Assembly: GCA_963965975.1 (NCBI GenBank)
Contig: OZ014414.1
Span: forward strand, 4,997,501-5,061,500
DNA: 64,000 bases
Origin: Xestospongia bergquistia
Taxonomy: Eukaryota > Porifera > Demospongiae > Haplosclerida > Petrosiidae
Direction: 5' to 3'
This document shows positions 25,831 to 49,668 of this stretch, piece by piece (within the stretch, counting starts at the first letter, position 1; the number at the start of each line of letters is the position of its first letter). The translations under genes were made by a program, and so were the position numbers. The notes under the pieces are model-generated. The model had not been told where the DNA came from, did not search any database, and worked only from the letters and a program-made list of their open reading frames with translations.

Positions 25831-25990
25831 GAAAATGATACACAATATTTGGTGTGATATGGTGTGTATAACACTCTATGTCTTGTGCATGCCAATGGTC
25901 ATAAATATGGGTATAACAAACTTCACTTTTTACAGTGATATGTTGTGTTTCTTCGAATCTATTGACGTCACTATTCACTGACTTATTGTA

Positions 25991-26780: not shown

Positions 26781-26813
26781 TGCGCATGCGCATTATATTT
26801 TAGTATGACGTCA
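26781..26813 (+). promoter_or_regulatory. NRF1-like and CRE-like palindromes (candidate promoter)
   Basis: TGCGCATGCGCA (26781-26792) is a perfect 12-base palindrome matching the NRF1 consensus. TGACGTCA (26806-26813) is a full cAMP-response element, 13 bases on. In an AT-rich context both perfect sites together are unlikely by chance and resemble a housekeeping-type promoter. Strand is set by the small spliced ORF downstream. Confidence 0.5.
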
Positions 26814-26931
26814 TTAATTTAGTAACACCTCAAGAGAAAGAAACGTGTGTTGTGTTAGTAGTTGTTTAGCTTTTCTAACATTACAAACGTCTAATGAAAC
26901 TACTCAACAATGGTTTGGAAGTGTCTCTGCT

Positions 26932-27386
26932 ATGTTTTTGAACAGTTTCAAGATAAATGAGTAAGTTTTTGAATGCGTTGTGGAATTGTGACACCTTTAG
27001 TATACACGCGTTAGTATGTTAATATACTTTTATTGTTGTATACTTATATATAACGAATATATGTTAGTAAATGTTGTTTATATTTGCTATATTAGAGCTT
27101 GTTTGAAGACAAAGCAAATTTACTCTATTTTTTGTCTTATTATAAAGTAGGAAGTAATCCATTTCTAGCTTCAATGTGTAGTATAAATACTTTTTACATT
27201 CCTAACATATCCAGTAGATGTATGTGAACTGTGTTCTTTTGTTGTAGCACATGTTACAGTTACTCCATCTATCTTCCTTCATCTGATAGTGTGGCATTAC
27301 TTGGTAATGAACGTAAGGGACTGAAAAGGATGGCCATGAGACTGACAACTATTTTACTTACCACAAGTTATGACACTGTGTCTTAG
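26932..27386 (+). CDS. Possible two-exon micro-ORF, 46 residues
   Basis: An ATG at 26932 is followed by 29 coding bases, a GTAAGT donor at 26961, a TTTTGTTGTAG acceptor before 27248 and 139 bases to TAG at 27384-27386. The phases match. The second exon reads 'SIYLPSSDSVALLGNERKGL', which looks protein-like. An earlier ATG at 26910 gives a different 16-codon frame. The family is unknown. It might be the truncated 5' end of a duplicated gene, given the candidate promoter 120 bases upstream. Confidence 0.3.
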
Positions 27387-28715
27387 GAAAGACTTTCCAT
27401 TTCTTTCTGAAGGTACATATTATGACATGATGTATTCATCTACTATTAACAACATCTACTAAATATTTATAACATACGGAAAACATCGTGATTTCTTAGA
27501 GACAGTAGTCTTAAAAGGACATGGAAATATTTTTTTCTCCCCTTTAGTCTTAACCCTTTACGTGCTAATTATTTGCGTGGGCGCATTCGGTAATTATTAA
27601 ATTATTTTGCCTTGAGGTATCAAGCATGCTTTTGTTTTGCTTTCTGTTTTATTCCTGTTATTTGAATATTTGAGATGATGTAAGATAAATTATTGAGGAC
27701 ATATTGTCTGCAAACAATAGCAAAGAGAAGTAGCAACTACTTCAGTCCTTCTACATTGTAATCTAACTGTTTTGCTGTATGTGTGGGTGGAAAATTAAAT
27801 TCCACTATTCTCAAAATTAATTTTTGACAGTAGCCACTGTATTTCCGTTTATATCTTGTTTCTTTAGCAACACTTGCATTTATCCAAGGTATCAAACAAT
27901 TCAGCATTATCTATACTTTAAAATGGTATGAAAATATGAAAATGACAGAAACGACTCAAATGGTCCCTTTTTGCTTATCTAGTCACAAATAGTATAGTTT
28001 AATCCAACTATTATCATGTAAGCACCATTTACTGCAGTAATACTAATTAACATTGAAACATTTTTCCATCAAGCCAAAAAAAGTGATTTGGCTTGAGTCT
28101 TCTGATGTAAGTTTATATTAAGATTGTGGTATACCCTTAAAACAATGTTCTATCTTTTTATTAAATAAACTTTCTATTGAACTGTTGTTGAGATGTGGCA
28201 ATGTGCAATGTACTACACTACAGCCTAGTAACAGTCGAAAGATTATTAATTTTAACCCCTGGTATTGCATAAATTTGCTAAAAGTTTTTAAAATTTAAGC
28301 ATCAAAAATATGCCCAATGGAAACAATTTTTAACCTCTTGGAATAATGTATACAAGTGTCCATAACTCAACAAATACTGAGTGCTCAATTCTGTGGATGT
28401 AGACCTTGTATTAAAATGAAGTTCCAGTTCACAATGTTTTAAACTAACTCTCTACTCTACTTGGAATGCAGCAAACGTTTTGTTTATGCTATATCATATT
28501 GTAGACTTGTTTTCCCTGTCAATTGGGCATTGAACCTTAGTTATCTTTAACTTTTCAATTACATCATTTCCTAAAAATTAGCAAAGTTTCTTCCAATAGA
28601 GCAAAAGTAACGATAACTATCTCCAATTAACTGTAACTAGCTAAAGCTATAGTGGAGAGTAAATCATAAACTATTAGCAGCAAAAAATTTAATTAAAAGT
28701 AACTAGTACTAAAAT
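27387..28715. other. AT-rich stretch with degenerate unit-flank repeats
   Basis: No coding exon supported. Short blocks such as 'cactacagcctagtaacagt' and 'ttttaaccc(c)tggtattgcataa' (about 28210-28335) recur in better-preserved form at 29830, 33730, 36190 and 43560. The stretch is therefore probably the oldest edge of the repeated-unit cluster. Confidence 0.45.
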
Positions 28716-28904
28716 TTAATGTTGAAATGGATAGACAAAGTCAATATTGGAATAATTGTTTCTTGAAGAAACAGATATTCCCAGAAACAATCTCTTAAGG
28801 TATCTTAGAACAGTTATAGGAGGATCACACAGCTTGCATTTAACACTCTCTTCACCAACTAATTCAAAAAACTCCCAAACTGCACTTTGAAAATGTTTAG
28901 CCAT
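28716..28904 (-). pseudogene. BED zinc finger of a hAT transposase (fragment)
   Basis: The ORF begins with Met and reads 'SAVWEFFELVGEESVKCKLC', the start of a BED finger (W-x-F-F then CxxC) as found at the N-terminus of many hAT transposases. The His pair and everything downstream are missing. The ORF continues into unrelated sequence. Confidence 0.65.
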
Positions 28905-28939
28905 TGCTTTGTCTGTTGAGCATGTGTTATCACGTTAAG

Positions 28940-30404
28940 GACGTGGCTTCGAACCGAATATTCGAATACCTCAGAATTATTGAAATAATTAGTGTAACAA
29001 TCAATTATTTGAATATTTGCACTATTCATTTCAACCCTACTAAAGTTTAATTGTAAATATCACACATGTATATACAACTGATTGTTAGTTAGTACACTTA
29101 TCTATAATAATATGAAGCGCTCTCTGTCAATCAAAGACTTGACAATTTCTTTAATGTCAGCCATAATTCACTAAACTTGAGTTGAGAATAACAGAAATAA
29201 AATTCACCTTCACACCTTGACTTAATTAATTAATTTAATCAATGTTGAAACTTGGGTGGGGCTTGCCAAAGTGCAGCACCACAACTTTGAACATGTCATT
29301 GATTCCTTTGGAACTATTTTCATAACTTTTTAATGGTAATGTTTACAGTCATTTTAACTGCTGATCTTGGGCTTTTTCCTATGGAGAATCTAGATGAACG
29401 TAGATATTATCACACTTATTGCATGCTATATTATATATACTCACGTGAAGAGCAGCACCATCTTGACAGCAGACCAACTCCCCTATGCCAATGCACAAAG
29501 CGAAAGGGCATTTGGTCTGCCTAATCCTCTACCTCTTCCCACTGTCAGAAGTTTATGAAAAATGGAAATACATATGCAACAGTGACAAATATCTGTAATT
29601 GTGCTTACTGATAATTCCTCGAAATGTTGTCAGGATAAAAGAAGCTGTGTTGAAGATAAAAAGGAACAATCATGACACAATTGGTTACATAAGTTACAGT
29701 CCTTTTCATCCACCTCCTCCTTCTACCATTATGGGGGCAGTCTCCCCCCATACATCACTTAAGAATTAAATTGTTATTGAACTCTTGCTGAGAATTGTCA
29801 CTAGAATATAGAAATGTGCACTGTATTATACTACAGCCTAGTACCAGTCTAAAGTTTACAAATTTTAACCCCTTGTATTACATAACTTTCCTTAGATTTT
29901 ATATGCTTTAAGCACTAAAATACACACCAAAGAAGTTAATTTTTAACCTCTTGTCTATCATAACTTTACCTTTAAAAGTATGCATAAAATAATTCTGATG
30001 TCAGAAGTCCACATTCTTATGATTGTGGAGTTCTAGCTTTAATGGCTTCTATTAGTGCGCACTAGGTTTGACACTGCTTCCTGAGTTGGAGCAAAACGTT
30101 CCTGGCAGCGTGAATGAGAGCACTCATCTCCATGTTGGCTTGTGCCTCATCTCCATGTTAGCTTGTGCTATTCACTTCCACAGATGCTGGAATGGATGCA
30201 CTGGCTCACACCTTGCAAGATGTGAGCAAAGTGATCGAAGAACATGCAGTGCTTGCTCTCTTTGAGGACCAATTTTCCATTTTCACAAGTAAACCTATAA
30301 GAATAGATCGTGTACAGAAATATAAATCAGTGTGTACTTACACCGCTCACTCCCTTCGTCCATTATATAATACAAACTGTTGGCGTTTGGCCCAAAATAA
30401 GCTT
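28940..30404 (-). repeat. Repeated unit U1, distal part (left of the piggyBac insertion)
   Basis: Continuation of U1 on the far side of the piggyBac element. 30330-30404 completes segment A, and 30068-30296 is the start of segment B. There the minus strand reads 'LKESKHCMFFDHFAHILQG' in one open stretch ending at a TAG shared with the sister copies. 29530-29760 is a diverged segment D. B is truncated soon after, at about 30060, where it joins a 'ttctagctttaatggcttct' block also present at 43450 and 57065. U1 is the most diverged full unit. Confidence 0.65.
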
Positions 30405-30408
30405 TTAA
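30405..30408. repeat. TTAA target-site duplication, left
   Basis: TTAA directly abuts the CCC terminus of the piggyBac element. Its partner is at 33251-33254. The uninterrupted sister sequence (AAGCTTTTAAGCTCTC, about 38360-38375) has a single TTAA. Confidence 0.95.
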
Positions 30409-30419
30409 CCCTTTCCGCG

Positions 30420-30445
30420 CCACCGACGCATTTATGCGTCGGTGG
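30420..30445. repeat. 26-base subterminal palindrome of piggyBac
   Basis: Two perfect 12-base arms around TT, eleven bases inside the left end. The core GACGCAT(A/T)AATGCGTC recurs near the end of the second piggyBac at 51.88 kb. A transposase-binding site is a reasonable inference. Confidence 0.85.
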
Positions 30446-30630
30446 CTGATTGTTCACCAGCGCCGACGACGCATTTATGCGTTTCGTGTATATAACATCT
30501 CGTACGTTGATCGATTTACCCAGAAACTTCAGTATTTCACAGAACATGACCTTTTTTCCAATTTTACTTTAATAAACCACTCCCTTATACCGTAAAACAC
30601 CTTAGTTAGCAGCTGTGAAAACATTACACA

Positions 30631-32599
30631 ATGGCAGATAAGTTGACCACAGAAGATGTTATTATAAGGCTGTTTAGTGATGAAGATGAGAGCGATTTTA
30701 GTGACATTTTTGATGAAGACTTAGGTATTATAATATTTAATTATATTTTATTTCAATAAAGCAAAAAAATTATATATATATATAGATGATGAAATTGATG
30801 TAGTAGCTGATAATATTGTTGTGGTTGATGAGACTGAAAAAGAACAATTGAATGGTAAGCTAAAAATTACTTTGCAATATATTGTATTATCATTATAAAA
30901 CTTACCTGTAATAGTAAGTGGTAGTGGAAGTGTACGTGAAGGTCGTGATAGGCGTGGCAGGGGACGTGGAGGTGGTGGTAGAGGACGAGGTGGTTGTTAC
31001 AGTGGTGTTAGGGGACGAGGTGGTTGTAGTAGTAACGGGAAAGGAGGTGATGGAGCTGAACCGTGGATACCAGTGGATGACCTCCAAGCTGACATTCCAC
31101 CAACAGCTATCCCATTCATGGAACAGCCAGGACCAAAAATTTCACTATCGGCAGACTCTTCCCCACTGGATTTCTTTTCTCTTTTCTTTAATGACGTAAT
31201 AATTCAGATGCTTGTTGATGGTACAAATGAGTATGCTGGTGATGTTATTGCTGAGAAGGAGAGAGGTGGAAAATTAACTCCAAAATCCAGATGGGTGAAG
31301 TGGAGACCAGTCACCACAGAAGAAATGAAGGCAGTCCTGGCGGTTATTATAAACATGGGGGTAATGCACTGCCCGGAACGAGCTAGCTATTGGAAGACAT
31401 CATGGGAGAGTTATATACCGTTCTTCCATGATGTTCTTCCACGTAACAGGTTTGAAGAGATCTTCTGGATGTTACATCTACAAGAAGACACAACATCAAC
31501 AAGACTACGACGAATTGACAAAGTTAAGCCTCTTCTCGATCAACTGCTTACAACATTCCAGAGTGTTTTCTACCCTGGACGTGAGATTTCAGTGGATGAA
31601 ACAATGGTTGGTTTCAAGGGTAGGGTTGGTTTCCGCCAATATTGTCCACTGAAACCGATTAAATGGGGCCTCAAGTCCTTTGTTCTTGCTGATAGTGCTA
31701 CAGGGTTTATTCTCAATATAATCCCGTACACTGGAGGTGAGACAAAGGACATATATCTGTCAAATTGTAACCCTGAACTCCCAAGCCTCACCCAGATAGT
31801 GTTGGCTCTTGTTGAAAATTATCTTCACAAGGGTCATCATATTTATGCTGACCGGCTCTATTCTAGTGTCCCTTTGGTTGATGAGCTAGAGAGGTGTAAC
31901 ACTGGTTACACTGGGACATTAGTTAGGACTCGGCAACAGCTTCCAAGTGTGGTAAGAGGCAAAAGTTTCAAATTGAATAAGGGAGAAACTAAGGCGTGGA
32001 GAGATGGAAAGAAATTGGTGTTGGCATGGAGGGACAAAGGGAAGCCAACAGTAATGATCTCCACTGTCTATCAGGGGTCAATGACGACAGTTCGAGGTCG
32101 CCGTGGAGAAACCAGGGAGAAACCTCTGGTTGTTGACAAGTACAACCAGAGCATGGGTGGAGTTGATATAGCTGATCAGTATGGATGTTACTATTCATTT
32201 GGAAGGAGGAGTATCAAGTGGTGGAGGAAGCTCATGTTCTGGTTGCTGGAGGTCAGCCTTGTGAATTCTTATATCCTCTATAAGGCAACTTCCTCAAATC
32301 ATTTGTCACATTCTGACTATCGGCGTAAGCTTGTAGTTGGATTGTGTGAGGGGTAGCCTGTAGGAGATGTAAGACGACAGCTCATGCGGCCTACCAGGTT
32401 GGAGGAGAGGTTCGAGGGACGTCATTATATTGAACGAGGACAGTCAAGACGTAGGTGTATTGTATGCAACAATGCTAAAAGAGGACAAAGACATGACACT
32501 ATCTTTTATTGTAAAACATGCACACATAATCCACCATTACACCCTGACATTTGTTTTGAACGTTACCACGAACTTGTTAATTATCATTTAGCTACATAA
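30631..32599 (+). pseudogene. piggyBac transposase, three exons, one in-frame TAG
   Basis: Exon 1 is 30631-30724, exon 2 is 30786-30854 and exon 3 starts at 30915. Phases agree (1 and 1). The N-terminus is acidic (DEDESDFSDIFDED). A Gly/Arg-rich segment with repeated RGRG follows (30930-31050). The DDE_Tnp_1_7 core then carries all three catalytic Asp contexts: SVDETMVGFKG, IYADRLYSS and GGVDIADQY. The frame meets TAG at 32354-32356, then continues open in the same frame to 32599. That last part holds the cysteine-rich zinc domain (CIVCNNAKRGQRH ... CKTCTHNPPLHPDIC) that binds the transposon end in this family. So the only visible lesion is one nonsense codon between the core and the zinc domain. 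The core alone is about 545 codons with its exons. The protein is expected in the nucleus. The promoter lies in the 220 bases between the left end and the ATG. Activity is unlikely without the C-terminal domain. Confidence 0.9.
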
Positions 32600-33250
32600 A
32601 TAAACTATATAAATATTACTTACTTGTCACTGTTTGTACTGTGTTGTATTGCATTGTATAACTATTGTCTTGAAATTGTGGTTTGTAATTATGATACATC
32701 TTACTAGAAGCTTCACATGTCTTGCTACAGACAAAAGCAACATACTAAAGCTGAAGCTTTTTGTTCATCTAATAACCTTACACTGTAGCTAGTGATCACC
32801 TATTTCACTATCCTCAAAAATGCCTAATTGCTCTATTTTACAACCACAAGATAAGTACATTCCAAAAACAGAAGGCCACGCCCACTCAAAGAACTAGTAC
32901 TACAACGCAAAAAAACACTGCAACGAAGAAATAAGAAACATTCTACTCATTCCTACTATCATCTAAGTCTATTTCAAATAAACAAAACATGGGGACTCTT
33001 GAAAGATGCTTTATACGTCATTTACAATGTGTGCGTAGTTATAACATAATGCTTACCTTGTAGACGACGAATACACAATTCATTAGAAGAACAAAACATC
33101 CAGGTATCCATATTGAAGCAAACGTGAAACAGCTAAACTTCTAGGAGACAGTTTAGAGATGATACAAGAGCTTAAACGCAACCACTCCAACCCTGAAAAT
33201 ACTCGTGCGTTGGCAGTAGTTACTTGCTTTATGCGCATGCGCGAAAAGGG

Positions 33251-33254
33251 TTAA
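33251..33254. repeat. TTAA target-site duplication, right
   Basis: Matches 30405-30408; see the piggyBac element. Confidence 0.95.
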
Positions 33255-33508
33255 GCTCTCTACAGGGAGAGATCCCTCAGAATCAAGAGCTAGTTCTCTA
33301 TCTTCAACGACTACGAAATCCATTTCTGTAAAACATCGCAAGAACGATTTAATTCAGGTATCTTCGCCTCATTGACTGTGAGCATGTTTATGGAACCACT
33401 TCTAGTGCCAGTGATGGCAGAAGCATTGGTACTGCTAAGAGCAGCTGCAGTCATAGTACTACATGTCAAACTAGTCGCAGTGTTTCCAGTACTAACATCA
33501 CTATTCAT
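33251..33508 (-). pseudogene. Segment A of unit U1, cut by piggyBac
   Basis: The first part (33311-33508) is a Ser/Thr/Ala-rich ORF starting MNSDVSTGNTATSLTC and ending IPELNRSCDVLQ. It then changes frame at a TTTTACAG to a second open stretch starting with Met (MDFVVVEDRELALDSEG). The piggyBac element breaks this after LPVES. The rest of A (AYFGPNANSLYYITDEG) is seen intact at 38256-38438. The first ORF is duplicated at 35770-35966 with amino acid changes (TGTRSG to SGSRSG). No family is recognised. TTTTACAG before AAATGG could be a splice acceptor, so the two open parts may be separate exons. Confidence 0.5.
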
Positions 33509-34055
33509 TTCAACACTACTAAAGTTTAATTGTTAATATCACACGTGTATATACAACTAATTGTTAGTTAGTACACTTATGTATAATACAATGAAATGCT
33601 CTCCGTCAATCAAAGACTTGACAATTTCTTTAATGTCAGCCATAATTCACTAAACTTGAGTTGAGAATAACAGAAATAAAATTCACCTTCACACCTTGAA
33701 TTAATTAATTTAATTAATGTTGAAACTCGGGTGTACCAATCTAAAGTTTGCAAAATTTTAACCCCTTGTATTGCATAACTTTCCTTCGATTTTCTAAGTT
33801 TTAAGCACTAAAATACACACCAAAGAAGTTAATTTTTAATCTCTTGTCTACCATAACTTTACCTCTAAAAGTATACATAAAATAATTCCTTTAGCTGTTA
33901 AACTTTTGTTTTTAAATCAATGGTTGCTTCTCCTTTTGGGCTTTTTTCAATGCAGAAGCTAGAATAACACAGATATTATGACACTTATCGTTTCCTATAT
34001 TATATATATATACATATCCCTAGAGCGGCAGCATGATATCAACAGAGTAGCTACC

Positions 34056-34390
34056 CTACACTCTTTGTGCCTGTGCACAAAGCGAAATTGCAGTTAGTCT
34101 GTCTATAGCTCTCCCTCCACTTTTTTTCTCCGTCAGAAGTCTATACAAGTGGGAATGCATATGCAACAGTGACAACAAGCTGTAATTGTGCTTACTGATA
34201 GTTTGTTGTAGTGCTGTGAGCACAACAATATCTGTGTTGAAGAAGAAATGAAACAATCATGACACAATTGGTTACAGAACTTACAGTTCTTTTTACCTCC
34301 CTCCTTCTTCTGCCATTACGGGGACATTCCCTCACCATACATTGCTGCAGAATTAAACAAACACAATAATATAATAATGTACATGTTTGT
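34056..34390 (-). pseudogene. Segment D of U2 (cysteine-rich)
   Basis: Two overlapping frames are open. One reads CMVRECPRNGRRRREVKRT and then joins, through a 53-base GT-AG intron-like stretch with a good pyrimidine tract, to 'ILLCSQHYNKL'. The other, open without splicing in U3, carries CxxC-type cysteines. Here that frame has a stop (CCGTAATGG where U3 has CCAACATTGG). The copy is therefore either spliced or dead. Confidence 0.4.
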
Positions 34391-35379
34391 GCATCCATTT
34401 GTGTTTGCTCATGTTGTAAGCATTACTTGTTGCAGAAATGCATGCAATGGACTATAGCTGTAGTATTGACTTACTGGGAGAGGAACAGGAGAAGGAGGAT
34501 GAGAAGGAATAATGGCAGGATCAGCAGACGGAGGAATGAGAGAATCAGAAGACTCGTGAACGGGAGGATCTCAATGAAGACGAATGAGAGGATCAGAATT
34601 TTCTGAGACAACATCCATCAAAGGGTTCTAAATTGCCAGAAAGATCACAATAATTGTGTGATATTTTAATCAAATCTCACGCACGTCATCTAAAAGATTC
34701 TCATCCTTGCGGACCTCGCTCATCAGCAGTAAAAAAACAAACAAACAGTAACACCAGTGACGCAAACACTTGTAGAAACCTACAATTTTCAGCTGCTCAA
34801 TCAAAAAGTCAGCAACGAAGCCTGGCAGCCTCTAGGTGACACTTATTGCAACCTATATTATATATATATCTATCACTAGAGCAGCAGTGTGATAAAGCAA
34901 AAATCATATCAATAAAATTATATGTAAATAAAAAATACATCAGTAAAATTGCCTAATGTTGAATATAATTTCCTTTAATATTGTATATTTTAGTCTGTGC
35001 TGGTACCTAAATTAAAAGGAAGTGACATTGCTGCATAACTTATATATAATGTTGCAGCTTACTTTTTTACTGTAGTTACTTTTATGGCATCAGACTAACT
35101 AACCTATGCTTGTTGTGCCTATGCATGAAGTGAAAGGGCAGTTAGTCTCCCTATATCTCTCTCTCCATTTTTTTCGACTGTCAGAAGTCTTTGCAAATGG
35201 GAGTACATATGCAACAGTGATAAATACCTCTAATTGTGTTTACTGAGAGTTTGTCAGTGTTGTGAATTTTTCGTAAATGTGTGACTGCCATACAAGGAGG
35301 TTTTGCCAGTGTTTGAGTATTTTTTGGCAACAACCGTCAATGCACATTGACTGGCAGCACAGACGAGGTCACTGTTACT

Positions 35380-35661
35380 CTAAAATTTATCTTTAGTGAG
35401 TGATGATGACCTCTCAGACCAAACACGTTGGCACCTTTGACAGCCACAACGATTGAGAATGTCCAGTATTTCTTGCTTTCTTTGGTGAGCCAACATTTGA
35501 AAAATAACAGAATCGCTTAGTTGTAAAATGCTCCGGTTAGTCAACATGTACAAAAGACTTACCCTCGCCCTCCAAAAGCAGAACAGCGTGGAGCGCACAC
35601 TTGGTTTCACACTGCTTGCTGAGTTGGAGCAAAACATTCCTGGCAGCGTGAATGAGAGCAC
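35380..35661 (-). pseudogene. Segment B of U2
   Basis: An open stretch of 93 codons. The first part is in a different frame from U3 and U4 because 8-10 bases of the 'cagcagttcctcc' block are missing. It then reads 'QEILDILNRCGCQRCQRVWS' and 'ERSSSLTKDKF'. After KDKF it stops, where U3 and U4 continue. A damaged copy. Confidence 0.5.
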
Positions 35662-35705
35662 TCATCTCCAAGTTGGCTTGTGCCTCATCTCCATATTAGC
35701 TTGTG

Positions 35706-35966
35706 CTATTCGCTCCCACAGCTGCCGGAATGGATGCACTGGTTCACACCTTGCAAGATGTGAGCAAGGTGATCGAAAAACATGCAGTGCTCTCTTTGAG
35801 GGCGATTTAATTCAGGTATCTTCGCCTCTTTGACTGTGAGCATGTTTATGGAACCACTTCTACTGCCACTAATGGCAGAAGCATTGGTACTGCTAAGAGC
35901 AGCTGCAGTCATAGTACTACATGTCAAACTAGTCACAGTGTTTCCAGTACTAACATCACTATTCAT
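35706..35966 (-). pseudogene. Fused A-B ORF of U2, 86 codons
   Basis: The Ser/Thr/Ala-rich start MNSDVSTGNTVTSLTC runs in frame through IPELNR directly into the B-type sequence 'HCMFFDHLAHILQGVNQC', ending CGSE-stop. The stop codon position (TAG after GSE) is shared with all other B copies. The fusion arose by a deletion of about 330 bases relative to U3 plus U1. No recognised domain. Confidence 0.5.
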
Positions 35967-36591
35967 TTCAACACTACTAAAGTTTAATTGTTAATATCAC
36001 ACGTGTATATACAACTAATTGTTAGTTAGTACATTTATGTATAATACAATGAAATGCTCTCCGTCAATCAAAGACTTGACAATTTCTTTAATGTCAGCCA
36101 TAATTCACTAAACTTGAGTTGAGAATAACAGAAATAAAATTCACCTTCACACCTTGAATTAATTAATTTAATTAATGTTGAAACTCGGGTGTACCAATCT
36201 AAGGTTTGCAAAATTTTAACCCCTTGTATTGCATAACTTTCCTTCGATTTTCTAAGTTTTAAGCACTAAAATACACACCAAAGAAGTTAATTTTTAATCT
36301 CTTGTCTACCATAACTTTACCTCTAAAAGTATACATAAAATAATTCCTTTAGCTGTTATACTTTTGTCTTTTAAATCAATGGTTGCTTCTCCTTTTGGGC
36401 TTTTTTCAATGCAGAAGCTAGAATAACACAGATATTATGACACTTATCGTTTCCTATATTATATATATATACATATCCCTAGAGCGGCAGCATGATATCA
36501 ACAGAGTAGCTACCCTACACTCTTTGTGCTTGTGCACAAAGCGAAATTGCAGTTAGTCTGTCTATAGCTCTCCCTCCACTTTTTTCCTCTG

Positions 36592-36843
36592 TCAGAAGTC
36601 TATGCAAGTGGGAATACATATGCAACAGTGACAACAAGCTGTAATTGTGCTTACTGATAGTTTGTTGTAGTGCTGTGAGCACAACAATATCTGTGTTGAA
36701 GAAGAAATGAAACAATCATGACACAATTGGTTACAGAACTTACAGTTCTTTTTACCCTCCTCTTTCTCCTGCCAATGTTGGGACATTCCCTCACCATACA
36801 TTGCTGCAGAATTAAACAAACACAATAATATAATAATGTACAT
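36592..36843 (-). CDS. Segment D of U3, 83-codon cysteine-rich ORF
   Basis: The ORF lies inside U3, after the C segment. After the in-frame MYGEGMSQHWQEKEEGKK, which follows a TTCTGCAG acceptor, the ORF reads 'NCKFCNQLCHDCFISSS' (C-x2-C-x3-C-x2-C), 'ILLCSQHYNKL' and 'CCHCCICIPTC'. The cysteine spacing suggests a small zinc-binding module. No known family fits. The same block is recognisable at 34.2, 29.6, 41.8, 43.95 and 56.5 kb. A 53-base GT-AG intron could be removed from it in the alternative frame, so the true reading is open. Confidence 0.4.
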   Translation of the reverse strand: MYIIILLCLFNSAAMYGEGMSQHWQEKEEGKKNCKFCNQLCHDCFISSSTQILLCSQHYNKLSVSTITACCHCCICIPTCIDF

Positions 36844-37583
36844 GTTTGTGCATCCATTTGTGTTTGCTCACGTTGTAGGCATTACTTGTTGCAGAAATGC
36901 ATGCAATGGACTATAGCTGTAGTATTGACTTACGGGGGAGCAACAGGAGAAAGAGGATCAGAAGAAGGAGGTATAGGAGGATCAGAAGAAGGAATATGAT
37001 GATCTGAGACAACATCCATCATAGAGTTCTAAATTACCAGAAAGATCACAATATTTGTTTGACATTTTAGTCAAATCTCACTCATGTTGTCTAAAAGATT
37101 CTCATCCTCAGGAACATCGCTCATCTGCAGTAAGAAACAAACAAACAGTAACACCAGTGACCCAAACACTTGTAGAAACTTTCAATTTTCAGCTGCTCAA
37201 TCAAAAAAGTCAGCAACGGAGCCTGGCAGCCTCTAGGTGATACTTATTGCAACCTATATTATATATATATATCTATCACTAGAGCAGCAGTGTGATAAAG
37301 CAAAAATCATGTCAATAAAATTATATGTAAATAAAAAATATGTAAGTAAAATTACCTAAAGTTGAATATAGTTTCCTTTAATATTGTATATTTTAGTCTG
37401 TGATGGTACCTAAATTAAAAGGAAGTGACATTGATGCATAACTTATATACAATGTTTCAGCTTACTTTTTTACTGTAGTTACTTTTGTCCCTTCAGACTA
37501 ACTAACCTATGCTTGTTGTGCCTGTGCATGAAGCGAAAGGGCAGTTTGTCTCCCTATATCTCTCTCTCCATTTTTTCCGACTG

Positions 37584-38096
37584 TCAGAAGTCTTTGCAAA
37601 TGGGAATACATATGCAACAGTAATAAATACCTGTAATTGTGTTTACTGAGAGGTTGTCAAAGTGTTGTAAATTTTTCGTAAATGTGTGACTTCCATACAA
37701 GGAGGTTTTGCCAGTGTTTGAGTATTTTTTGGCAACAACCGTCAATGCACATTGACTGGCAGTACAGGCGAGGTCACTGTTAATTTCAAATTTATCTTCA
37801 GTGAGTGATGATGACCTCTCAGACCAACCACGTTGGCACCTTCGACAGCCACAACGATTGAGAATGTCCATTATTTCTTGCTTTCTTTGGTTATTGAGGT
37901 GGCGAGCCAACATTTGAAAAATAACAGAATTGCTAGGTTGTAAAATGCACCAGTTAGTCAACATGTACAAAAGACTTACCCTCACCAGCAGTTCCTCCAA
38001 AAGCAGAACAGTGTGGAGCATGCACTGGGTTTCACACTGCTTGCTGAGTTGGAGCAAAACGATCCTGGCAGCGTGAATAAGACCACTCATCTCCAT
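37584..38096 (-). CDS. Segment B of U3, 170-codon ORF
   Basis: The longest open copy of B, inside U3 downstream of segment A. It begins MEMSGLIHAARIVLLQLSKQ, an amphipathic helix. It continues 'LLLEELLVRVSLLYMLTN', then 'VIFQMLARHLNNQRKQEIMD' and 'ILNRCGCRRCQRGWSERSS'. A Thr/Lys-rich part follows and it ends in a short Cys-rich tail. The U4 copy (40866-41258) stays open over 130 codons with conservative changes, so the frame has been kept in at least two copies. A GTAAGT and CCTAG pair 47 bases apart lies within the ORF, with a TTGACTAAC branch-like site, and removing it would change frame. Just upstream a 23-base block is tandemly duplicated. No recognisable fold, signal peptide or membrane segment is seen. 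Confidence 0.45.
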   Translation of the reverse strand: MEMSGLIHAARIVLLQLSKQCETQCMLHTVLLLEELLVRVSLLYMLTNWCILQPSNSVIFQMLARHLNNQRKQEIMDILNRCGCRRCQRGWSERSSSLTEDKFEINSDLACTASQCALTVVAKKYSNTGKTSLYGSHTFTKNLQHFDNLSVNTITGIYYCCICIPICKDF

Positions 38097-38255
38097 GTTG
38101 GCTTGTGCCTCATCTCCATATTAGCTTGTGCTATTCACTCCCACAGCTGCTGGAATGGCTGCACTGGCTCACACCTTGCAACATGTGAGCAAGATGATCG
38201 AAGAAGATGCAGTGCTCTCTTTGAGGACCAATTTACCCATCTGTCACAAGTAAAC

Positions 38256-38535
38256 CTATAAGAGTAGATCGTGTACAGAAATATAAATCAGTGTGTACTT
38301 ACAGCGCTCTCTCCCTTCATCCGTTATATAATACAAACTGTTGGCGTTTGGCCCAAAATAAGCTTTTAAGCTCTCTACAGGGAGAGATCCCTCAGAATCA
38401 AGAGCTAGTTCTCTATCTTCAACGACTACGAAATCCATTTCTGTAAAACGTCGCGAGAACGATTTAATTCAAGTATCTTTGCCTCTTTGACTGTGAGCAT
38501 GTTTATGGAACCACTTCTAGTGCCAGTGATGGCAC
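38256..38535 (-). CDS. Segment A (second part) of U3
   Basis: From the Met at 38438 the ORF reads MDFVVVEDRELALDSEG, 'SLPVESLKAYFGPNANSLYY' and 'ITDEGRERCK', followed by a TGTAAGTA donor. The acidic/hydrophobic pattern is protein-like. The upstream Ser-rich part (38450-38535) is cut short by the pogo element at 38538. This copy is uninterrupted across the TTAA where U1 carries piggyBac. Family unknown. Confidence 0.45.
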
Positions 38536-38537
38536 TA

Positions 38538-40248
38538 CTGTAAATCCCTTTATTTATGTGTCCCTTTATTTTAGCAATTTGAGCATTTTACATCATAAAA
38601 CATCCTTTTATTTTGGCGATTTGAAAATTAGCATTAGTATACAGAACAGCTGAAAACAGTTTAGGATGCATGATTATTAGAGTTCAGTCAGTGATAGAAT
38701 CCATGATGCTAGCCTTTACAAATCCTTCTATGATGACGTCACTGGAAATATGTGAAACAGCTTCAATGAGCCATCTGGCATGTAGTGGCTTAAGAACTGA
38801 TATGCGAAGATCCGGTTTGATATTTTCTAGCTCTACTCCATCACCCAACTGTTTTTTGACTAGATCTGCATACCAACTAATGAAGCAAACCTTTAGTTCC
38901 TGTTTGAACACTTGGTTAACCGTAAGGTCTAGTGGCTGGAGTTCTCCAGTGCAATTAGCTGGTATAAAGATGCATTTGATGTGATTTCTTTCCAGTAATT
39001 GAAGTATGCTATTACAGCAAAAACGTCAAAAAGAGCAAGAGCAAAAGATCCTTCTCTAAGTCCAATCTTTCTCTGGTGGACTGCACTTAAGGGACAAGAA
39101 CAAAGTCTATGAAGTGTAGCATAGTATCATCTGTGCTCCAATGGGTCTCTGAGTGATGAATGTCCCATCCAGGAGGAAAAATAATGTCAGGATGGCATTT
39201 GTTTGCTTTTCCACAGTAGATCAAGTGTGGAGGGAGAAGAAACCCAGACATTGTGCATGACAAAAGAACAGTCATCTCTCTCTTATCTTCCTTCCCGATA
39301 ACATTAACTTGCTTTGACCCTTCCTCTGTGCACTCACTAGTAGGCACATATTTAGCACCAGTCTGGTCACAATTTATAATCAGCTCAGGTGGGATATTGT
39401 GATCTTTAACGCAATCAACAATACGCTTGAGACATGCCAGTTTTATCTAAGAGAAGTTCACGGGAACCTTACGAGCAGCCTTTGTTGCCTTTTGCTTAAC
39501 ATAATTCATCCTGGTCATAAGAGAGTCTGCCCATTTCTTTCCTAATTGGATTGTTACCCCATGTGCTCACACAACAGAGAAGGATTGTTGTGCTCAACAA
39601 TTCCCCTAGCAGCAGCTATAACAGTAGCTCTATTGACAATTCCACCGGCTAAGCGCAACTTTCTGATATAATCTTGAACACTTGAATCTAAATTTCCCAG
39701 CTTGAGTGGTCCTCCACGGAGGTGGTGCTCAAGTCTTGTGACTGGCTCGCCTGTACGGTTCTGTCTTAAGGCTTCGTAGTAGCGTTTTTTAAAACCCCGC
39801 ACAGTACTCTTGCTCAGAGGCTTTCCCACTTCCCTAGAAAACCTTTCTATAGCTGCCTTGTTGCCTGATTCTGCTGCAAACTTCCCGATTTTAGCGCGAA
39901 GTTCAGGCGAGTAGAACGTGTAAGTACCTCGTGGTTGTTTGCGTCTATCTTGAGACTCCATGGCTTCCACAACGTTGGTATTCGCTTTAGCTACCTTATG
40001 CTCTTTCTCTTTCGTCTCATCCTTGGATGGATCAGGTAGATACGGCTTGCTAGAAACACTCGAGAACCAGCGGTAGAGAGACATTGTCGTTCTGCACGCG
40101 TAAAGTCATGCAACGTGCGCTGCAGTTTAGTAACACGTGGAAATCACGTGATTAATTAAATTTTTAACCATTCATTAATTTTAGCGACTAGGAAGAAATC
40201 GTGAAACTCGCGAAAATTAAAGGACTACATACATAAAGGGATTTACAG
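38538..40248 (-). mobile_element. pogo-type element, 1711 bp, TA-flanked
   Basis: Ends are CTGTAAATCCCTTTAT (left) and ATAAAGGGATTTACAG (right), an inverted match extending imperfectly for about 40 bases, with TA on each side (38536-38537, 40249-40250). It contains one transposase gene on the minus strand. The left flank is segment A of a repeated unit, but the right flank is the B-C spacer of another unit, so the two flanks were not contiguous in any other copy. Confidence 0.88.
38684..40084 (-). pseudogene. pogo-type DDE_1 transposase remnant
   Basis: Met at 40084 opens 176 codons: a Lys/Glu-rich lead, then 'RGTYTFYSPELRAKIGKFAA' and 'ERFSREVGKPLSKSTVRGFK', which fit the helix-turn-helix DNA-binding region of pogo-like transposases, up to 39554. 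39087-39347 holds 'VNVIGKEDKREMTVLLSCTM' and 'PDIIFPPGWDIHHSETHW' of the DDE domain. 38684-38911 holds 'NQVFKQELKVCFISWYADL'-type C-terminal sequence. The parts are in different frames with several stops between (39350-39550, 38915-39085), so the enzyme is dead. Confidence 0.8.
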
Positions 40249-41485
40249 TAGTAAAATTGCCTAATGTTGAATATAGTTTCCTTTAATATTGTATATTTTG
40301 GTCTGTGCTGGTACAGAATTAAACAAACACAATAATATAATAATGTACATGTTTGTGCATCCATTTGTGTTTGCTCACGTTGTAGGCATTACTTGTTGCA
40401 GAAATACATGCAATGGACTATAGCTGTAGTATTGACTTATGGGTGGTGGAACAGGAGAAGGAGTATGAGAAGGAATAATGGCAGGATCAACAGATGGACG
40501 AATGAGAGGATCAGAATTTTCTGTGACAACATCCATCAAAGGGTTCTAAATTGCCATAAAGATCACAATAATTGTGTGATATTTTAATCAAATCTCACTG
40601 ACATAGTCTAAACGATTCTCATCCTCGCGGACATCACTCATCTGCAGTAAAAAACAAACAGTAACACCAGTGACGCAAACACTTGTAGAAACTTAAAATT
40701 TTCAGCTGCTCAATCCAAAAGTCAGCAACAGAGCCTGGCAGCCTCTAGGTGACACTTATTGCAACCTATATTATATATATACCTATCACTAGAGCAGCAG
40801 TGTGATAAAGCAAAAATCATATCAATAAAATTATATGTAAATAAAAAATACGTAAGTAAAATTACCTAATGTTGAACATAGTTTCCTTTAATATTGTATA
40901 TTTCGGTAACAACTTTCAATGCACATTGTCTGGCAGTACAGGCGAGGTCACTGTTAATCTCAAATTTATCTTTAGTAAGTAATGATGACCTCTCAGACCA
41001 AACACGTTGGCACCTTTGACAGCCACAACGATTGAGAATGTCCAGCATTTCTTCCTTTCTTTGGCGAGCCAACATTTGAAAAATAACGAAATCGCTAGGT
41101 TGTAAAATGCACCGGTTAGTCAACATGTACAAAAGACTTACCCTCGCCAGCAGTTCCTCCAAAAGGAGAACAGTGTGGAGCGTGCACTGGGTTTCACACT
41201 GCTTGCTGAGTTGGAGCAAAACATTCCTGGCAGCATGAATGAGAGCACTCATCTCCATGTTGGCTTGTGCCTCATCTCCATATTAGCTTGTGCTACTCAC
41301 TCCCACAGCTGCCGGAATGGATGCACTGGTTCACACCTTGCAAGATGTGAGCAAGGTGATCGAAAAACATGCAGTGCTCTCTTTGAGGACGATTTATACA
41401 ATTTGTTAAGCTGTCCTCTTTTGTTGTGCCTTGGCATACACTGAATCCCTCACTTCCTTTCCACTATAGAATTTGTTAAGAAGTA
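40249..41485 (-). repeat. Repeated unit U4, partial (B and C)
   Basis: 40866-41258 is segment B and 40440-40660 is C. Both are on the minus strand, in the order expected for the family if the unit runs from 41.4 kb down. D is missing. It is cut by the pogo element on the left. The right end (41385-41450) carries 'cgatttatacaatttgttaa', shared with the copy near 57.27 kb instead of segment A. Confidence 0.7.
40866..41258 (-). CDS. Segment B of U4, 130-codon ORF
   Basis: It begins MEMSALIHAARNVLLQLSKQ and continues 'LLLEELLARVSLLYMLTN', 'FVIFQMLARQRKEEMLDILN', 'RCGCQRCQRVWSERSS' and 'KDKFEINSDLACTARQCAL', then runs into the B-C spacer. It differs from U3 mainly by conservative substitutions and the loss of the HLNN insertion. 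Function unknown; see U3. Confidence 0.45.
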   Translation of the reverse strand: MEMSALIHAARNVLLQLSKQCETQCTLHTVLLLEELLARVSLLYMLTNRCILQPSDFVIFQMLARQRKEEMLDILNRCGCQRCQRVWSERSSLLTKDKFEINSDLACTARQCALKVVTEIYNIKGNYVQH

Positions 41486-42166
41486 TTAAATTCTACAATT
41501 ATATAAATAAGCATTTCCTCTCACTTCCATCTCATGGACTTTTCTTCTAATGATCCCATTAAGCTCATTCCACTTTTGTCGAGCTAAAAGAGCTGACGGG
41601 CAATTTTGATCAAATAGACAGAGCACAGGGAAAATTTTCACTTTACAATCGTTGTTTTTATGGAAGTAGATCAATCATAATGTCTGTTAGTGGACATCAA
41701 TAACATTTAATTAATTTTTGTATACTTTTAATACAATTGCTTACAGAACTTACAGTTCTTTTTACCTCCCTCCTTTTCCTGCCAATGTTGGGGCATTCCC
41801 TCACCATACATCGCTGCAGAATTAAACGAACACAATAATATAATAATGTACATGTTTGTGCATCCATTTGTGTTTGTTCACGTTGTAAGCATTACTTATT
41901 GCAGAAATGCGTGCAATGGACTATGGCTGCAATATTGACTTATGGGGGGGAGGAACAGGAGAAAGAGGATCAGAAGAAGGACGAATGGGAGGATCAGAAG
42001 AAGGATGAACAGAAGGATCTGAGACGACAACATCCATCAAAGGTTTCTAAATTGCCAGAAAGATCACAATAATTGTGTGACATTTTAATCAAATCTCACT
42101 CATGTCGTCTAAAAGATTCTCTAAAAGATTCTCATCCTCGCGGACCTCACTCATCTGCAGTGTTCT
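41486..42166 (-). repeat. Partial unit U5 (D and C only)
   Basis: 41735-41880 is segment D (KNCKFC block, lacking its second half). 41940-42150 is C, with 'RKDENLL'-like lead and Ser-Asp-Pro repeats. 41486-41700 is unassigned. The unit abuts the Ty3/gypsy integrase fragment at 42.16 kb. Confidence 0.55.
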
Positions 42167-42745
42167 GTGGCACAGGTTGAGAGCATAGTAATTAGTGTTT
42201 TGTTGAATCAACAACTCCATCTGATTGAGGGTGATAATGTGTTGTCTTTGATTTGTTTATTCGAAGGATATTACATATTTGTTGTAGCAGTTCTGATTCA
42301 AATTGTCTACCTTGATTGGAATGAAGTTGCTCTGGAAGACCAAAACGGCAGAAGAATTTGTCCACCAGTGCTCGAGCTACTGTAATAGCTTCTTGGTTTA
42401 GAATAGGGAATGCCTCCATCCAACGAGTGGAATAATCTCCTATGACCAACAGATAGGAGTTCCCAGCATCACTCTCTGGCAATGGTTCTAGTATATCCAC
42501 CGCTACTAATTGCATTGGGTAGCCTGTTTTAACCGGCTTTAGTGCTGCCTTCCGTTTTAGAGGAGGAGTTTTGCTAGCAGCACACACTGAGCAGGTTTGA
42601 CACCATCATCTAACATAGTTCCAGTGGCCAGGCCAGTAAAATCTTTGCTTCAATCAACTTAGTGTCTTTTCTTCACCTAGGTGACCTGCGACAGCTCCAC
42701 TGTGTAGTCCCTCAAGAATTTCTGGATGTAATTGTCTAGGAGCAA
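42167..42745 (-). pseudogene. Ty3/gypsy integrase fragment
   Basis: Minus strand: an HHCC zinc module (LHSGAVAGHLGEEKTL ... QTCSVC, 42590-42740) with two in-frame TGA codons, then the catalytic core 'MQLVAVDILEPLPESDAG', 'YLLVIGDYSTRWMEAFP', 'FGLPEQLHSNQGRQFES', 'THYHPQSDG'. The usual HSDQG motif reads HSNQG, so the second catalytic Asp is changed to Asn. Both ends are truncated. The upstream end is fused to a piggyBac 5' fragment. Confidence 0.9.
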
Positions 42746-43013
42746 CAATTTATTTGCTTTTAATGAAATAAATTATAATTAAATATTATAATACCTAAGT
42801 CTTCATCAAAAATGTCACTAAAATTGCTCTCTTCGTCATCGCTAAACAGCCTTACAATAACATCCTCTGTGGTTAATTTATCAGTCATCGTGTAATGTTT
42901 TCATACCTGTTAACTAAGGTGTTTTATGGTATAAGGGAGTGGTTTATTAAAGTAAAATTGGAAAAAAGGTCATGTTCTGTGAAATACTGTTGTTAGTGCG
43001 GAAAGGGTTATGG
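42746..43013 (-). pseudogene. 5' fragment of the piggyBac family
   Basis: On the minus strand from a CCCTTTCCGC terminus at about 43010, the leader (TTTAATAAACCACTCCCTTA) and first exon (ATG at 42888, MTDKLTTEDVIVRLFSD) match the complete element at 30409. The subterminal palindrome has been deleted. The copy breaks off within intron 1 at the gypsy integrase. The flanking TTAA is damaged. Confidence 0.85.
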
Positions 43014-44155
43014 ACTAACCAAGAATCCATTGAGTTGCTTCTAATATCTCCTTTAGTCTGGGAAGTATCCAAAACCTAATTCTAGCTGCAGTCAACTAAC
43101 TGACAATATTATACGCATAGTATACATATTCCACACAACTGAGCGCATTACATGTATATAACAACGCACAGCACTCTAACTGACTGAAGAAATTAAAAAC
43201 ATTGAAATGTCCATACTAGAGAAGACTAAATTCTAATCTATAAGCAGCAAAACTTTTAAAAAGTAACTTGAACTAAATGGCAAACTTCATACTGGTATAT
43301 ACAACTAATGCACTGTCATATTTGTTTTTATATTCACTACAGTAATACTAATAAACATTGAGAAGTTTTCTCTTCCAGCCAACAAGAACAAGTGACTTGG
43401 CTGTGTCTTCTGATGTAAGAAGTTCACATTCTTATGATTGTGGTGTTCCAGCTTTAATGGCTTCCATTAGTTTTGGGATACTCTTAAAGACATGTTTTGT
43501 TTTAGTGAGCGATTTATTGAACTGTTGATGATAATTGGCACTAGCATATATTAATGTGCACTGTACTATAGCCTAGTTTCAGTACAAAGTATGCAGATTT
43601 TAAATGAACACAATAACTTAATAATGTACGTGTTTGTGCGTCCATGTGTGTTTGCTCACATTGTAGGCATTACTCGTTGCAGAAATGCATGCAATGGACT
43701 ATGGATGAAGTGTTAGTGTAGTCGATTTTTCAAGCATCTATTTTCTTGTTTGGCTTATCATCTGGTTACAAAGTAACAAACAATTCCATCCCCAATGGAA
43801 ACTATTCATTGAAGTAGATCAATCATAATGTCTGTAAGTGGACATCAATAACATTTTAATTAATTTTTATATACTTTCAATGCAATTGCTTACAGAACTT
43901 ACAGTTCTTTTTACCTCCCTTCTTCTCCTGCCAATGTTGGGGCATTCCCTCACCATACATCGCTGCGGCATTTAACGAACACAATAATATAATAATGTAC
44001 ATGTTTGTGCATCCATTTGTGTTTGCTCACGTTGTAGGCATTACTTGTTGCAGAAATGCGTGCAATGGACTATGGTTGCAATATTGACTTACGGAGGGAG
44101 GAACAGGAGAAAGAGGATCAGAAGAAGGACGAACAGGAGGATCTGACACAGTTTC
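43014..44155 (-). repeat. Partial unit U6 and unit flanks
   Basis: 43380-43610 holds unit-flank sequence ('ttctagctttaatggcttct' variants). 43620-43700 and 43880-44060 repeat the C-D spacer and D lead. 44090-44150 ends in C-type GGATCAGAAGAAGG repeats. No ORF is preserved. 43070-43330 and 43730-43800 are unassigned. Confidence 0.55.
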
Positions 44156-45892
44156 ATTGCAGTACTGCAAGATGCTGATCTTGATAAGCAGGATTAACAA
44201 TTTCACTTTCTCACATTCAATTACAAATAGATCCAACAATCAATGTTGTCACCAACTAATGTTTTGTTATATTAATTATTTCAATGGTATTGTGCTGCTA
44301 TGTAGTGATTATAACCTACTATTGTCATCCCTATCATGCTCTTGTTTCTTTAGATTTTATAGCAGCATCCTTACATGGTTTTAATTTTTGTAGAAAAAAA
44401 TTTTATTTTTAGTTATTATTATTAGCTAGATAAGTAAATTAAAATGAATACTGAGTAAAAAAAAATAATTAGATCTACTATATAGTTATTTTGCCTTTTT
44501 TGTGAATTTAAGATTTCAAAAGTGAGCTTAACTCTAAATAAAACTAAAAAAAAGCATTTAGTAACAATTGAATTTACCAGATTGCATTTTCTTTTCATGT
44601 TTTTTAGTCTGAGTCACTTGTACGGACTTACATTAATTTCATCCTGTGTATTTTGATGGAAGTTTTTGACAAAAGTAAACCTATAACTTACTTCTTTTGG
44701 TTTTCCCCTGGATCACTTCATCACTCTTTTTACATAGCAATCAACATATAGTCCACACTAAAAATATGGAAACAACTTACCTTCATTTTTCAGTGGTTTT
44801 AATATTAGTAGGAGCCCTCTTCTGTCCATTATTGAACAAAGTAAAGAAGGAAAAAAAAGGTTTTGTCGTGCAGCAAATTTTGAAATGTATCAGTTTGTTT
44901 ATCTTACCTTTGGAACATAACTATGAACCTCCTAGTTAGAAAATTAAAAAGGGACAAATGATCTCAATCAAATTCATCTTCACTACTATCTTCATCAAAT
45001 TCTATTTCCTATTTGAAAGAATAGAGTCATGTTAAAAATTTAATTTGAGTGCAGAGTAAAATTAGCAATAATACGAATATTATTTTATCATTTCCTTTCT
45101 CTGACTCTTGTACATCATCCTATTAAAAAATATTACTATGGACAAGTCTAACACTTTGGATTAGAGAAGATACAAAGAGTTCATGCAATTATCTTATCTA
45201 TGCATATCAATATAACAATGCTTAAAGCTTAAAGAAATCCATCTTACTATCATAAATAGCTAAAACAAAACAATTCAATATTAAAAGATGTGAGAAGGTA
45301 TAAAACCAAAGTAGCTGGACCAAACAGAAAGTTTGAACTTACATCCTAGACTAACAGTAAACACTGTTAAAACCTTTGTATATCTGTGTTTAATGTGTGC
45401 TAATTTCATTTGTCACTTTCAATTGTCACATATAACAATAGAACAAAATTAAGTGTAGAAACATACCACATATTCTAAAATAATTGTAAGCCTGCATCCA
45501 AAAAGTATGTATAAATGTAATAAACACCTTACATTAGTATAGTTTTAATGTATCAAGTATAAATTATGCTTACAGACTCTCACTTGAATTTCTGTATCAC
45601 CACCATCACTCTTTTCATAATGGAGAAACAAAATAGAAACAATAACTTGTGCTGTTATGCTTATGTATAAATAAATATACTACTACTTCTATTGATTGCA
45701 TGTAGTTAGTTCTTAATACATATATAAAAAGTATTTTAAAAAGTATATACCTCTTCTGATACATTTAAATGTTTTCTTAACTCTTATGTAGCCTGAAATG
45801 AACATAATTGTTAACTTCTATTTCAAGGTTATTCATAATATTTATTGATTTTAACATACTATTTGTTTCCTTTTCATCTCATTAATTGCTGA
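44156..45892. other. AT-rich stretch, possible small acidic exons
   Basis: No gene is established. On the minus strand several short open pieces bounded by AG and GT are acidic, for example about 44950-44990 (FDEDSSEDEFD), 45085-45122 and 45560-45612 (SDGGDTEIQV), and 45753-45790. They may be exons of the gene whose exons lie at 45893-46325, but phases could not be made to fit throughout. Confidence 0.3.
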
Positions 45893-48532: not shown

Positions 48533-48570
48533 ATATTGCTTTAATACTATTACTTATTTGTACATGATAT

Positions 48571-49666: not shown

Positions 49667-49668
49667 AA

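What the first reader, a model, noticed from the sequence alone, without database searches (positions are those of the whole stretch)
28940..44155. Tandem ~2.5-kb gene-like unit of no recognised family
The same ordered minus-strand segments (Ser/Thr-rich plus acidic A, helical B with CGCxRC, Ser-Asp-Pro repeat C, CxxC-type cysteine-rich D) recur in three adjacent units and several partial ones. Open frames survive in more than one copy (B at 37584-38096 and 40866-41258; A at 33311-33508 and 35770-35966). Amino-acid substitutions between copies are often conservative. No integrase, transposase or RT belongs to the unit itself. It could be a lineage-specific multigene family or the cargo of an unknown element.
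Basis: partly seen in the sequence, partly recalled or inferred. Interest (0 to 1): 0.78.

Follow-up and report, generated by a model that had tools for sequence, protein, structure and literature searches.

The report
Decayed gene-fragment array in duplicated DNA
The repeated unit is a cluster of broken, no longer constrained gene pieces, one of them a TDP-43-type self-assembly domain, carried in a stretch of DNA that was copied between several chromosomes; it looks like an ordinary gene graveyard rather than a working new gene family or a new mobile element.

Summary
The repeat is real: 33345-35801 and 35803-38226 match at 92% over 2483 columns, with further units nearby. It lies inside an interchromosomal segmental duplication: window ~20.0-50.4 kb recurs on C13, C1 and partly C7, main pieces 89-97% identical. 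Fragments number tens in about ten clusters (lower bounds). A2 (MDFVVVEDRELAL...) is a piece of a TDP-43 N-terminal-domain gene (PF18694): sub-threshold here, above cut-off in a 70%-identical relative that exactly lacks a 47-bp intron. It was inserted between A1 and the next segment; sites without it survive. A1 and B are internal pieces of a longer protein (~850 codons, frameshifted, at C1:20.10 Mb) without Pfam match; no intact copy was found. C and D belong to a separate upstream block and look non-coding. Substitutions between array copies look neutral. A piggyBac element and an older pogo-type remnant interrupt units. Verdict: decayed gene-family fragments amplified by tandem and segmental duplication. 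Open: what the ancestral protein was, and whether an intact copy survives.

The parts
20000..50400 (.). Stretch that recurs, in blocks, as a segmental duplication at C13:2958217-2995706, C1:100110-132903 and, in part, C7:6011843-6028020; 20000 and 50400 are the ends of the queries used, not mapped borders
   Evidence: Main pieces 89-97% identical, one 252-bp piece 99%
33345..35801 (-). Tandem unit a (E3, broken B, C, D, spacer, A1)
   Evidence: 92% to 35803-38226 over 2483 columns; 90.9% to C13:2981406-2983918
35803..38226 (-). Tandem unit b
   Evidence: its extended form 35803-38601 is 95.5% identical to C13:2981031-2983824, so C13 has one unit where the window has two
38455..38534 (-). A1 fragment (Ser/Thr-rich part, SAITGTRSGSINMLTVKEAK...) upstream of the A2 insert
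   Evidence: 91% to A1 of 35770-35990; frame
38227..38460 (-). About 232-bp insert A2: start of a TDP-43 N-terminal-domain coding sequence (begins with Met) plus a 47-bp intron
   Evidence: Between GAATTAAATC and CCTCAAAG the gap is 234 nt here and 2 nt at 35813-35801; PF18694 E=0.003, 17.9 bits, below the 27.1-bit cut-off
38256..38302 (-). 47-bp intron GTAAGT...TTATAG inside A2 (a second copy at 30295-30341)
   Evidence: Absent exactly from the relative in C3:5387700-5388080; positions
37587..38120 (-). B, open frame of 178 aa (with CGCRRC)
   Evidence: homologous to C1:20100347-20101228
40869..41282 (-). B, open frame of 138 aa in the third unit
35361..35701 (-). B of unit a, with deletions, a frameshift and a stop
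35770..35990 (-). A1 joined directly to E3 (site without the A2 insert), across the a/b boundary
33251..33532 (-). A1 plus the first half of an A2, cut at TTAA by the piggyBac element
30054..30408 (-). Second half of the same A2, then E3 and a B fragment
30405..33254 (+). piggyBac-type element with TTAA on both sides, 485-codon open frame at 30899-32356
   Evidence: DDE_Tnp_1_7 E=3.2e-84; site without it at C13:2983915-2983918
38684..40105 (-). pogo/Tigger-like remnant (name recalled from the DDE_1 family) interrupting the third unit
   Evidence: DDE_1 E=2.8e-6 in 38684-39025; like frames in the matching block at C13:2975644-2977014
36654..37140 (-). 'Acidic', C (Ser-Asp-Pro) and D (Cys-rich) segments: part of an upstream repeat block
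   Evidence: No third-position excess in C and D (the acidic segment was not tested); block recurs apart from A1/B
42192..42605 (-). Retroelement integrase fragment (rve) between units
   Evidence: PF00665 E=3.7e-10

Best explanation
This is a decayed ('graveyard') array of fragments of what were probably at least two host genes or gene parts: one coding for a TDP-43 N-terminal-type domain at its N-terminus (A2), and a longer one of unknown family whose internal part gave A1, E3 and B. Shown: fragments are repeated in tandem; a ~232-bp piece of a TDP-43_N sequence with its intron sits between A1 and E3 in some copies and is missing in others; the whole neighbourhood recurs on C4, C13, C1 and C7; pogo-type, gypsy-type and piggyBac elements landed at different times; the array copies show no sign of purifying selection. 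Inferred: A2 as the inserted part rather than lost from the others; unequal exchange and ectopic recombination or repair as the duplication route; the ancestral product as a scaffold that self-assembled through its TDP-43-type head-to-tail domain; no product today.
For: Tandem repeat 92%. Segmental duplication: window 25.6-41.5 kb vs C13:2974242-2990000 in five main pieces, four at 94.1-97.6% and unit a at 90.9%, apart from inserted elements; 20.0-25.6 kb and 41.6-50.4 kb match C13, C1 and C7. Low copy number: 50 rows for the B DNA, of which 20 cover only a short dispersed repeat at query 427-513 (40 of 46 candidates scored); 28 rows for the B protein (32 of 32 scored). No constraint: between four pairs of array copies syn/nonsyn 7/14 (neutral expectation of syn 6.3), 5/11 (4.9), 2/10 (3.4), 2/12 (4.1); codon-phase counts flat for A1, E3, A2, D, C and the spacer. 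A2 = TDP-43_N: E=0.003 in the window, 2.4e-6 (27.8 bits, cut-off 27.1) for the C3:5387679-5388332 frame, which is 70% identical to A2; the low-confidence model of the C3 domain has human TDP-43 N-terminal-domain chains as its best 4 of 114 Foldseek hits, none significant. Sites with and without the insert, and exact absence of the 47-bp intron in C3.
Against: Fifteen of 28 B-protein rows have no stop inside and four are full length, two of them in this window. B against the C1:20.10-Mb copy has somewhat more synonymous change than neutral (16-19 vs 12.9-13.8; P = 0.03, 0.14, 0.15, 0.21, 0.24, not independent), while the two wrong frames do not, so older constraint on B is likely. One of six A1 pairs gave P = 0.03. 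B codon-phase counts are uneven (117, 71, 100; p = 0.004), though third positions are not the fastest. The window A2 itself is below the Pfam cut-off, and a PDB sequence search with the C3 domain found no TDP-43 (one unrelated hit, E=0.58). No intact parent gene was found, so 'host gene' versus 'extinct element' is not settled. Transcription was not testable.
Confidence: 0.8

Rival explanations
1. A living lineage-specific multigene family: each unit is a multi-exon gene (A1, A2, E3, B, C, D) still making protein.
For: Four of 28 B-protein rows are full length and stop-free; splice sites of the 47-bp intron kept in the copies that have it; weak older constraint on B.
Against: Array copies show no constraint; E3 and B are in different or stop-broken frames in the window units; the reading frame of A1 meets a stop inside the A2 insert; unit a has deletions, a frameshift and a stop in B; C and D show no coding signature.
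Confidence: 0.1
2. Remains of an extinct transposable element whose protein included A1-B and the following ~490 codons.
For: No intact copy of the long protein was found; the C1:20.10-Mb copy is one continuous stretch of about 2.5 kb; copies lie on several chromosomes.
Against: No common termini: copies compared end at different places with shared internal deletions (13 stretches); the spread of the window copies is explained by segmental duplication of >30 kb; no transposase, reverse transcriptase or integrase match in the A1-B or later pieces; low copy number.
Confidence: 0.12
3. Ordinary satellite or simple tandem repeat with chance open frames.
For: The frame lengths themselves are within chance.
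Against: Pieces match, as protein, divergent copies with 41-77% identity, and A2's relative matches a curated protein family above cut-off.
Confidence: 0.03

Closest known systems
TDP-43 (TARDBP) N-terminal domain, Pfam PF18694
   Same: A2 aligns to profile positions 13-49; its C3 relative aligns to 13-66 above the curated cut-off
   Different: In the window it is a truncated fragment in a decayed context; whether RNA-recognition motifs ever followed it was not searched for
Segmental duplications (duplicons) with pseudogene clusters, as described in vertebrate genomes (recalled)
   Same: Low copy, interchromosomal, tens of kb, main pieces 89-97% identical, rich in nested transposons and gene fragments
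   Different: Here in an unnamed 146-Mb genome; the ancestral gene behind A1/B is unidentified
DIX domains of Axin and Dishevelled
   Same: Passages of PMC5491494 say that the TDP-43 N-terminal domain resembles DIX domains in fold and head-to-tail polymerisation
   Different: The Pfam scans of A2 and its relatives returned no DIX family

Membership tests
TDP-43 N-terminal domain (PF18694) | Score above the curated cut-off of 27.1 bits | tested here: not met
   Window A2 17.9 bits, E=0.003. The relative C3:5387679-5388332 scores 27.8-29.8 bits, above the cut-off
TDP-43 N-terminal domain (PF18694) | Clear homology to a member above cut-off | tested here: met
   A2 vs C3:5387784-5387924 70% identity, E=1.6e-14; 84% over 146 bp of DNA
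TDP-43 N-terminal domain (PF18694) | Ubiquitin/DIX-like fold | tested here: inconclusive
   Model of the C3 domain has mean pLDDT 47.8; best four Foldseek hits are human TDP-43 NTD, E 0.2-0.72
Protein-coding multigene family in current use | Purifying selection between array copies | tested here: not met
Protein-coding multigene family in current use | Transcription | not testable with these tools
   No RNA data held
Transposable element | Shared termini of copies | tested here: not met
   Copies of the C1:20.10-Mb stretch start and stop at different places; only the 13 stretches put together from fetched loci were compared
Transposable element | Own transposase, integrase or RT | tested here: not met
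   Pfam scans of the A1-B and later pieces
Segmental duplication | Low-copy blocks over 1 kb and over 90% identical at non-allelic places | tested here: met
SET-domain proteins (considered for the part after B) | Match to PF00856 | tested here: not met
   No family at E<=10 (proteins 1 and 2); no PDB sequence at E<=10

The most novel reading that the evidence does not exclude
The fragments are the relics of an unrecognised protein family: a TDP-43-type head-to-tail self-assembly domain coded by a first exon, followed by a long exon (Ser/Thr-rich A1, helical B with a CGCxRC motif, and about 490 more residues) that no Pfam model recognises. It was once under selection and expanded, then died across this genome, with intact members surviving in related species.
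Probability: 0.2. Interest if true: 0.5.

Novelty: new member of a known kind. Interest (0 to 1): 0.25.

Why it matters
It turns a seemingly new gene-like unit into a readable history: tandem duplication, insertion of a TDP-43-type exon, copying between chromosomes, and insertions of pogo-, gypsy- and piggyBac-type elements that can be ordered by sites without them in the sister copies. It also points to several TDP-43 N-terminal-domain sequences in this genome (8 rows, 7 over the cut-off on their own score) and to a long protein of no known family worth looking for in related species.

Tried and rejected
SET domain for the stretch after B: suggested by eye, not supported. Codon models with IQ-TREE stopped with an error and gave nothing; phase counts and a simulation replaced them. 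A first BLAST run with unsupported scoring gave empty lists, repeated with other scoring. Viral contigs: no relative of B or of the later stretch. PDB by sequence: one unrelated hit at E=0.58 for the C3 domain, six unrelated hits with E 0.08-1.4 for B. NCBIfam: nothing at E<=0.1 for 5 proteins. Structure of B: mean pLDDT 43, all helical, not interpretable, so not searched further. Structure of the C3 TDP-43_N domain: mean pLDDT 47.8. Promoter/terminator scan of 38000-38400 is built for bacteria and says nothing here. Papers: 1 paper, unrelated; 8 of 87 listed; 4; 6 of 45 listed; 1; all seen as search listings only, except PMC5491494, of which I read passages. None of the titles and abstract starts listed described this array; that is no proof that it is unpublished.
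Full report
Observation. The window is C4:4997501-5061500 of an unnamed 146.46-Mb genome in 21 contigs. Self-comparison confirms the tandem repeat: 33345-35801 and 35803-38226 are 92% identical over 2483 columns; further units or parts of units lie at 40314-41444 and 41657-44146, and partial ones at 28.2-30.4 and 55.6-57.3 kb. Frame length alone means little: simulated sequence of the same composition reaches a median of 119 and a 95th percentile of 166 stop-free codons in this span.

Larger setting. The unit is not free-standing. Window 25626-41523 matches C13:2974242-2990000 in five main pieces: 97.6, 96.7, 95.5 and 94.1%, and 90.9% for unit a; units a and b both match the same C13 stretch, so C13 has one unit where the window has two. 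Main blocks also match C1:105001-128686 at about 90-97%, with lower values where different units are paired. The left neighbour 20000-25600 matches C13:2990026-2995706 (96%), C7:6023398-6028020 (94%), C1:128330-132903 (93%) and C1:40619-43761 (94%). The right neighbour 41600-50400 matches C13:2958217-2967100, C1:100110-105437 and C7:6011843-6014472 in pieces. This is an interchromosomal segmental duplication of more than 30 kb; its borders were not mapped. Further left, pieces of 8000-19900 recur at C1:136.5-142.4 kb and C13:3034-3038 kb, mixed with many dispersed repeats.

Copy number. The B DNA gives 50 rows genome-wide; 20 of these cover only query 427-513, a short dispersed repeat. The B protein gives 28 rows at E<=0.01: 15 without a stop inside, 4 of them full length (two in the window, two on C13). 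Counts are lower bounds by the tool's own statement.

What A2 is. The frame MDFVVVEDRELALDSEGSLPVESLKAYFGPNANSLYYITDEGRERC matches the TDP-43 N-terminal domain, PF18694, at E=0.003, below the cut-off. A relative 70% identical to it at C3:5387784-5387924 lies in a 218-codon frame that passes the cut-off (27.8 bits against 27.1; 29.8 bits). The family search finds 8 rows in the genome, 7 over the cut-off on their own score and one with its neighbour, none in the window. A structure model of the C3 domain is poor (mean pLDDT 47.8), yet its four best PDB matches of 114 are human TDP-43 N-terminal domains; none is significant (E 0.2-0.72). A PDB search by sequence did not find TDP-43.

Insert and intron. 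Aligning 14 sequences around the A1-E3 junction shows the site without A2 (C4:5033165-5033420, C1:124230-124440, C3:5386930-5387100) and with A2 (C4:5035560-5036100, two places on C13, C1:119500-119950; others are partial or cut by the piggyBac element). In the window the gap is 234 nt at 38470-38226 and 2 nt at 35813-35801. The insert resembles C6:6893485-6893661 (91.5% to the window A2). It carries a 47-bp stretch GTAAGT...TTATAG that is exactly missing from the C3 relative: this is most simply an intron that was spliced out before that copy was made (inference).

What A1 and B are. In C1:20100347-20101228 A1, E3 and B form one 294-codon frame without A2. Homology to other copies runs from about C1:20101420 to 20098870, about 850 codons broken by frameshifts. 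Pfam gives no credible family for any piece; the hits listed are far below cut-off. Searches with the later stretches give 31 and 22 rows, none a full copy in one open frame; reading seven of the fetched clusters shows stops, short pieces and shared internal deletions. A divergent or intron-rich intact gene could have been missed. On C3 a frame like the TDP-43_N ones (5381028) stands upstream of an N-A1-E3-B-later series (5381427-5382700) in the same orientation; a frame of the same kind at 5379007 scores E=0.0048, below cut-off. I infer a gene with a TDP-43_N exon followed by a long exon; this is not shown.

C and D. They belong to a block that lies upstream of A1 and recurs with and without it. 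Their substitutions show no third-position excess, and two different frames of D give nearly the same pN/pS (0.62 and 0.67; B and A1 give 0.63, A2 0.78, C 1.16). I read them as non-coding.

Selection. Fitch counts by codon position: A1 55/56/64, A2 10/13/16 and B 117/71/100 in their reading frames (B p=0.004, first positions highest); by phase of the reference, E3 26/26/32, D 49/36/51, C 33/29/18, spacer 60/50/52 (all p>0.1). Against neutral simulation, four pairs of array B copies show no synonymous excess, while five comparisons with the C1:20.10-Mb copy show 16-19 synonymous changes against 12.9-13.8 expected (P 0.03 to 0.24, not independent) and the two wrong frames show none. So B was probably once constrained and no longer is within the array. 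A1 comparisons gave P 0.03 to 0.60 over six pairs, A2 0.30 to 0.58 over three, D 0.12 to 0.95 over six frame tests.

Timing by inserted elements. The pogo-type remnant at 38684-40105 is also on C13 (2975644-2977014), so it predates that duplication. A gypsy-type element (named by eye from its frames) stands on C13 between about 2977104 and 2981031, with GTTTT on both sides, where the window has a single GTTTT at 38597-38601, so it came later there. The piggyBac element, TTAA-flanked at 30405-33254, is absent from C13 at 2983915-2983918 and splits one A2, so it came later here.

How it works. Shown: tandem repeats, A2 present or absent between A1 and E3, duplication between chromosomes, no detectable constraint between array copies. 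Inferred: unequal exchange and ectopic recombination or repair as the route; the ancestral product as a self-assembling scaffold, because the TDP-43 N-terminal domain polymerises head to tail (passages of PMC5491494). The array itself most likely makes no product.

Verdict. A real but ordinary feature: a decayed gene-fragment array in a segmental duplication. What remains open is the identity of the ancestral A1/B protein and whether an intact copy exists outside what I could read.

Noticed in passing
30405-33254: piggyBac-type element with an open 485-codon frame (DDE_Tnp_1_7, E=3.2e-84), TTAA on both sides and a site without it in the C13 duplicate, so it came after that duplication.
   Followed up: partly
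C13:2977104-2981031 (L022, L023): Gypsy-type element (named by eye) with long open frames inside the C13 duplicate, GTTTT on both sides, absent from the window at 38597-38601.
   Followed up: partly
50425-51306: Second, broken piggyBac-like copy on the minus strand, about 72% identical to 31247-31742 of the first.
   Followed up: no
54610-54981: SET-domain fragment (PF00856, E=3.3e-6) on the minus strand; a similar frame lies at C1:107483-107845 next to a piggyBac-like fragment (by eye).
   Followed up: no
L013, C1:374331-375797: 489-codon frame with a P-loop-like GPPGVGKTTF stretch in the middle of a fragment cluster; not scanned.
   Followed up: no
C4, C13, C3 and C7 clusters: Clusters on C4 (5.03 of 9.83 Mb), C13 (2.98 of 6.49 Mb), C3 (5.2-5.4 of 11.48 Mb) and C7 (4.28 of 8.32 Mb) lie near contig middles, which could mean pericentromeric DNA; C1 clusters and C7:6.02 Mb do not fit.
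   Followed up: no
window 13836-14525: Tandem array of about 121-bp units that recurs in arrays on C12, C8, C10 and C4.
   Followed up: no
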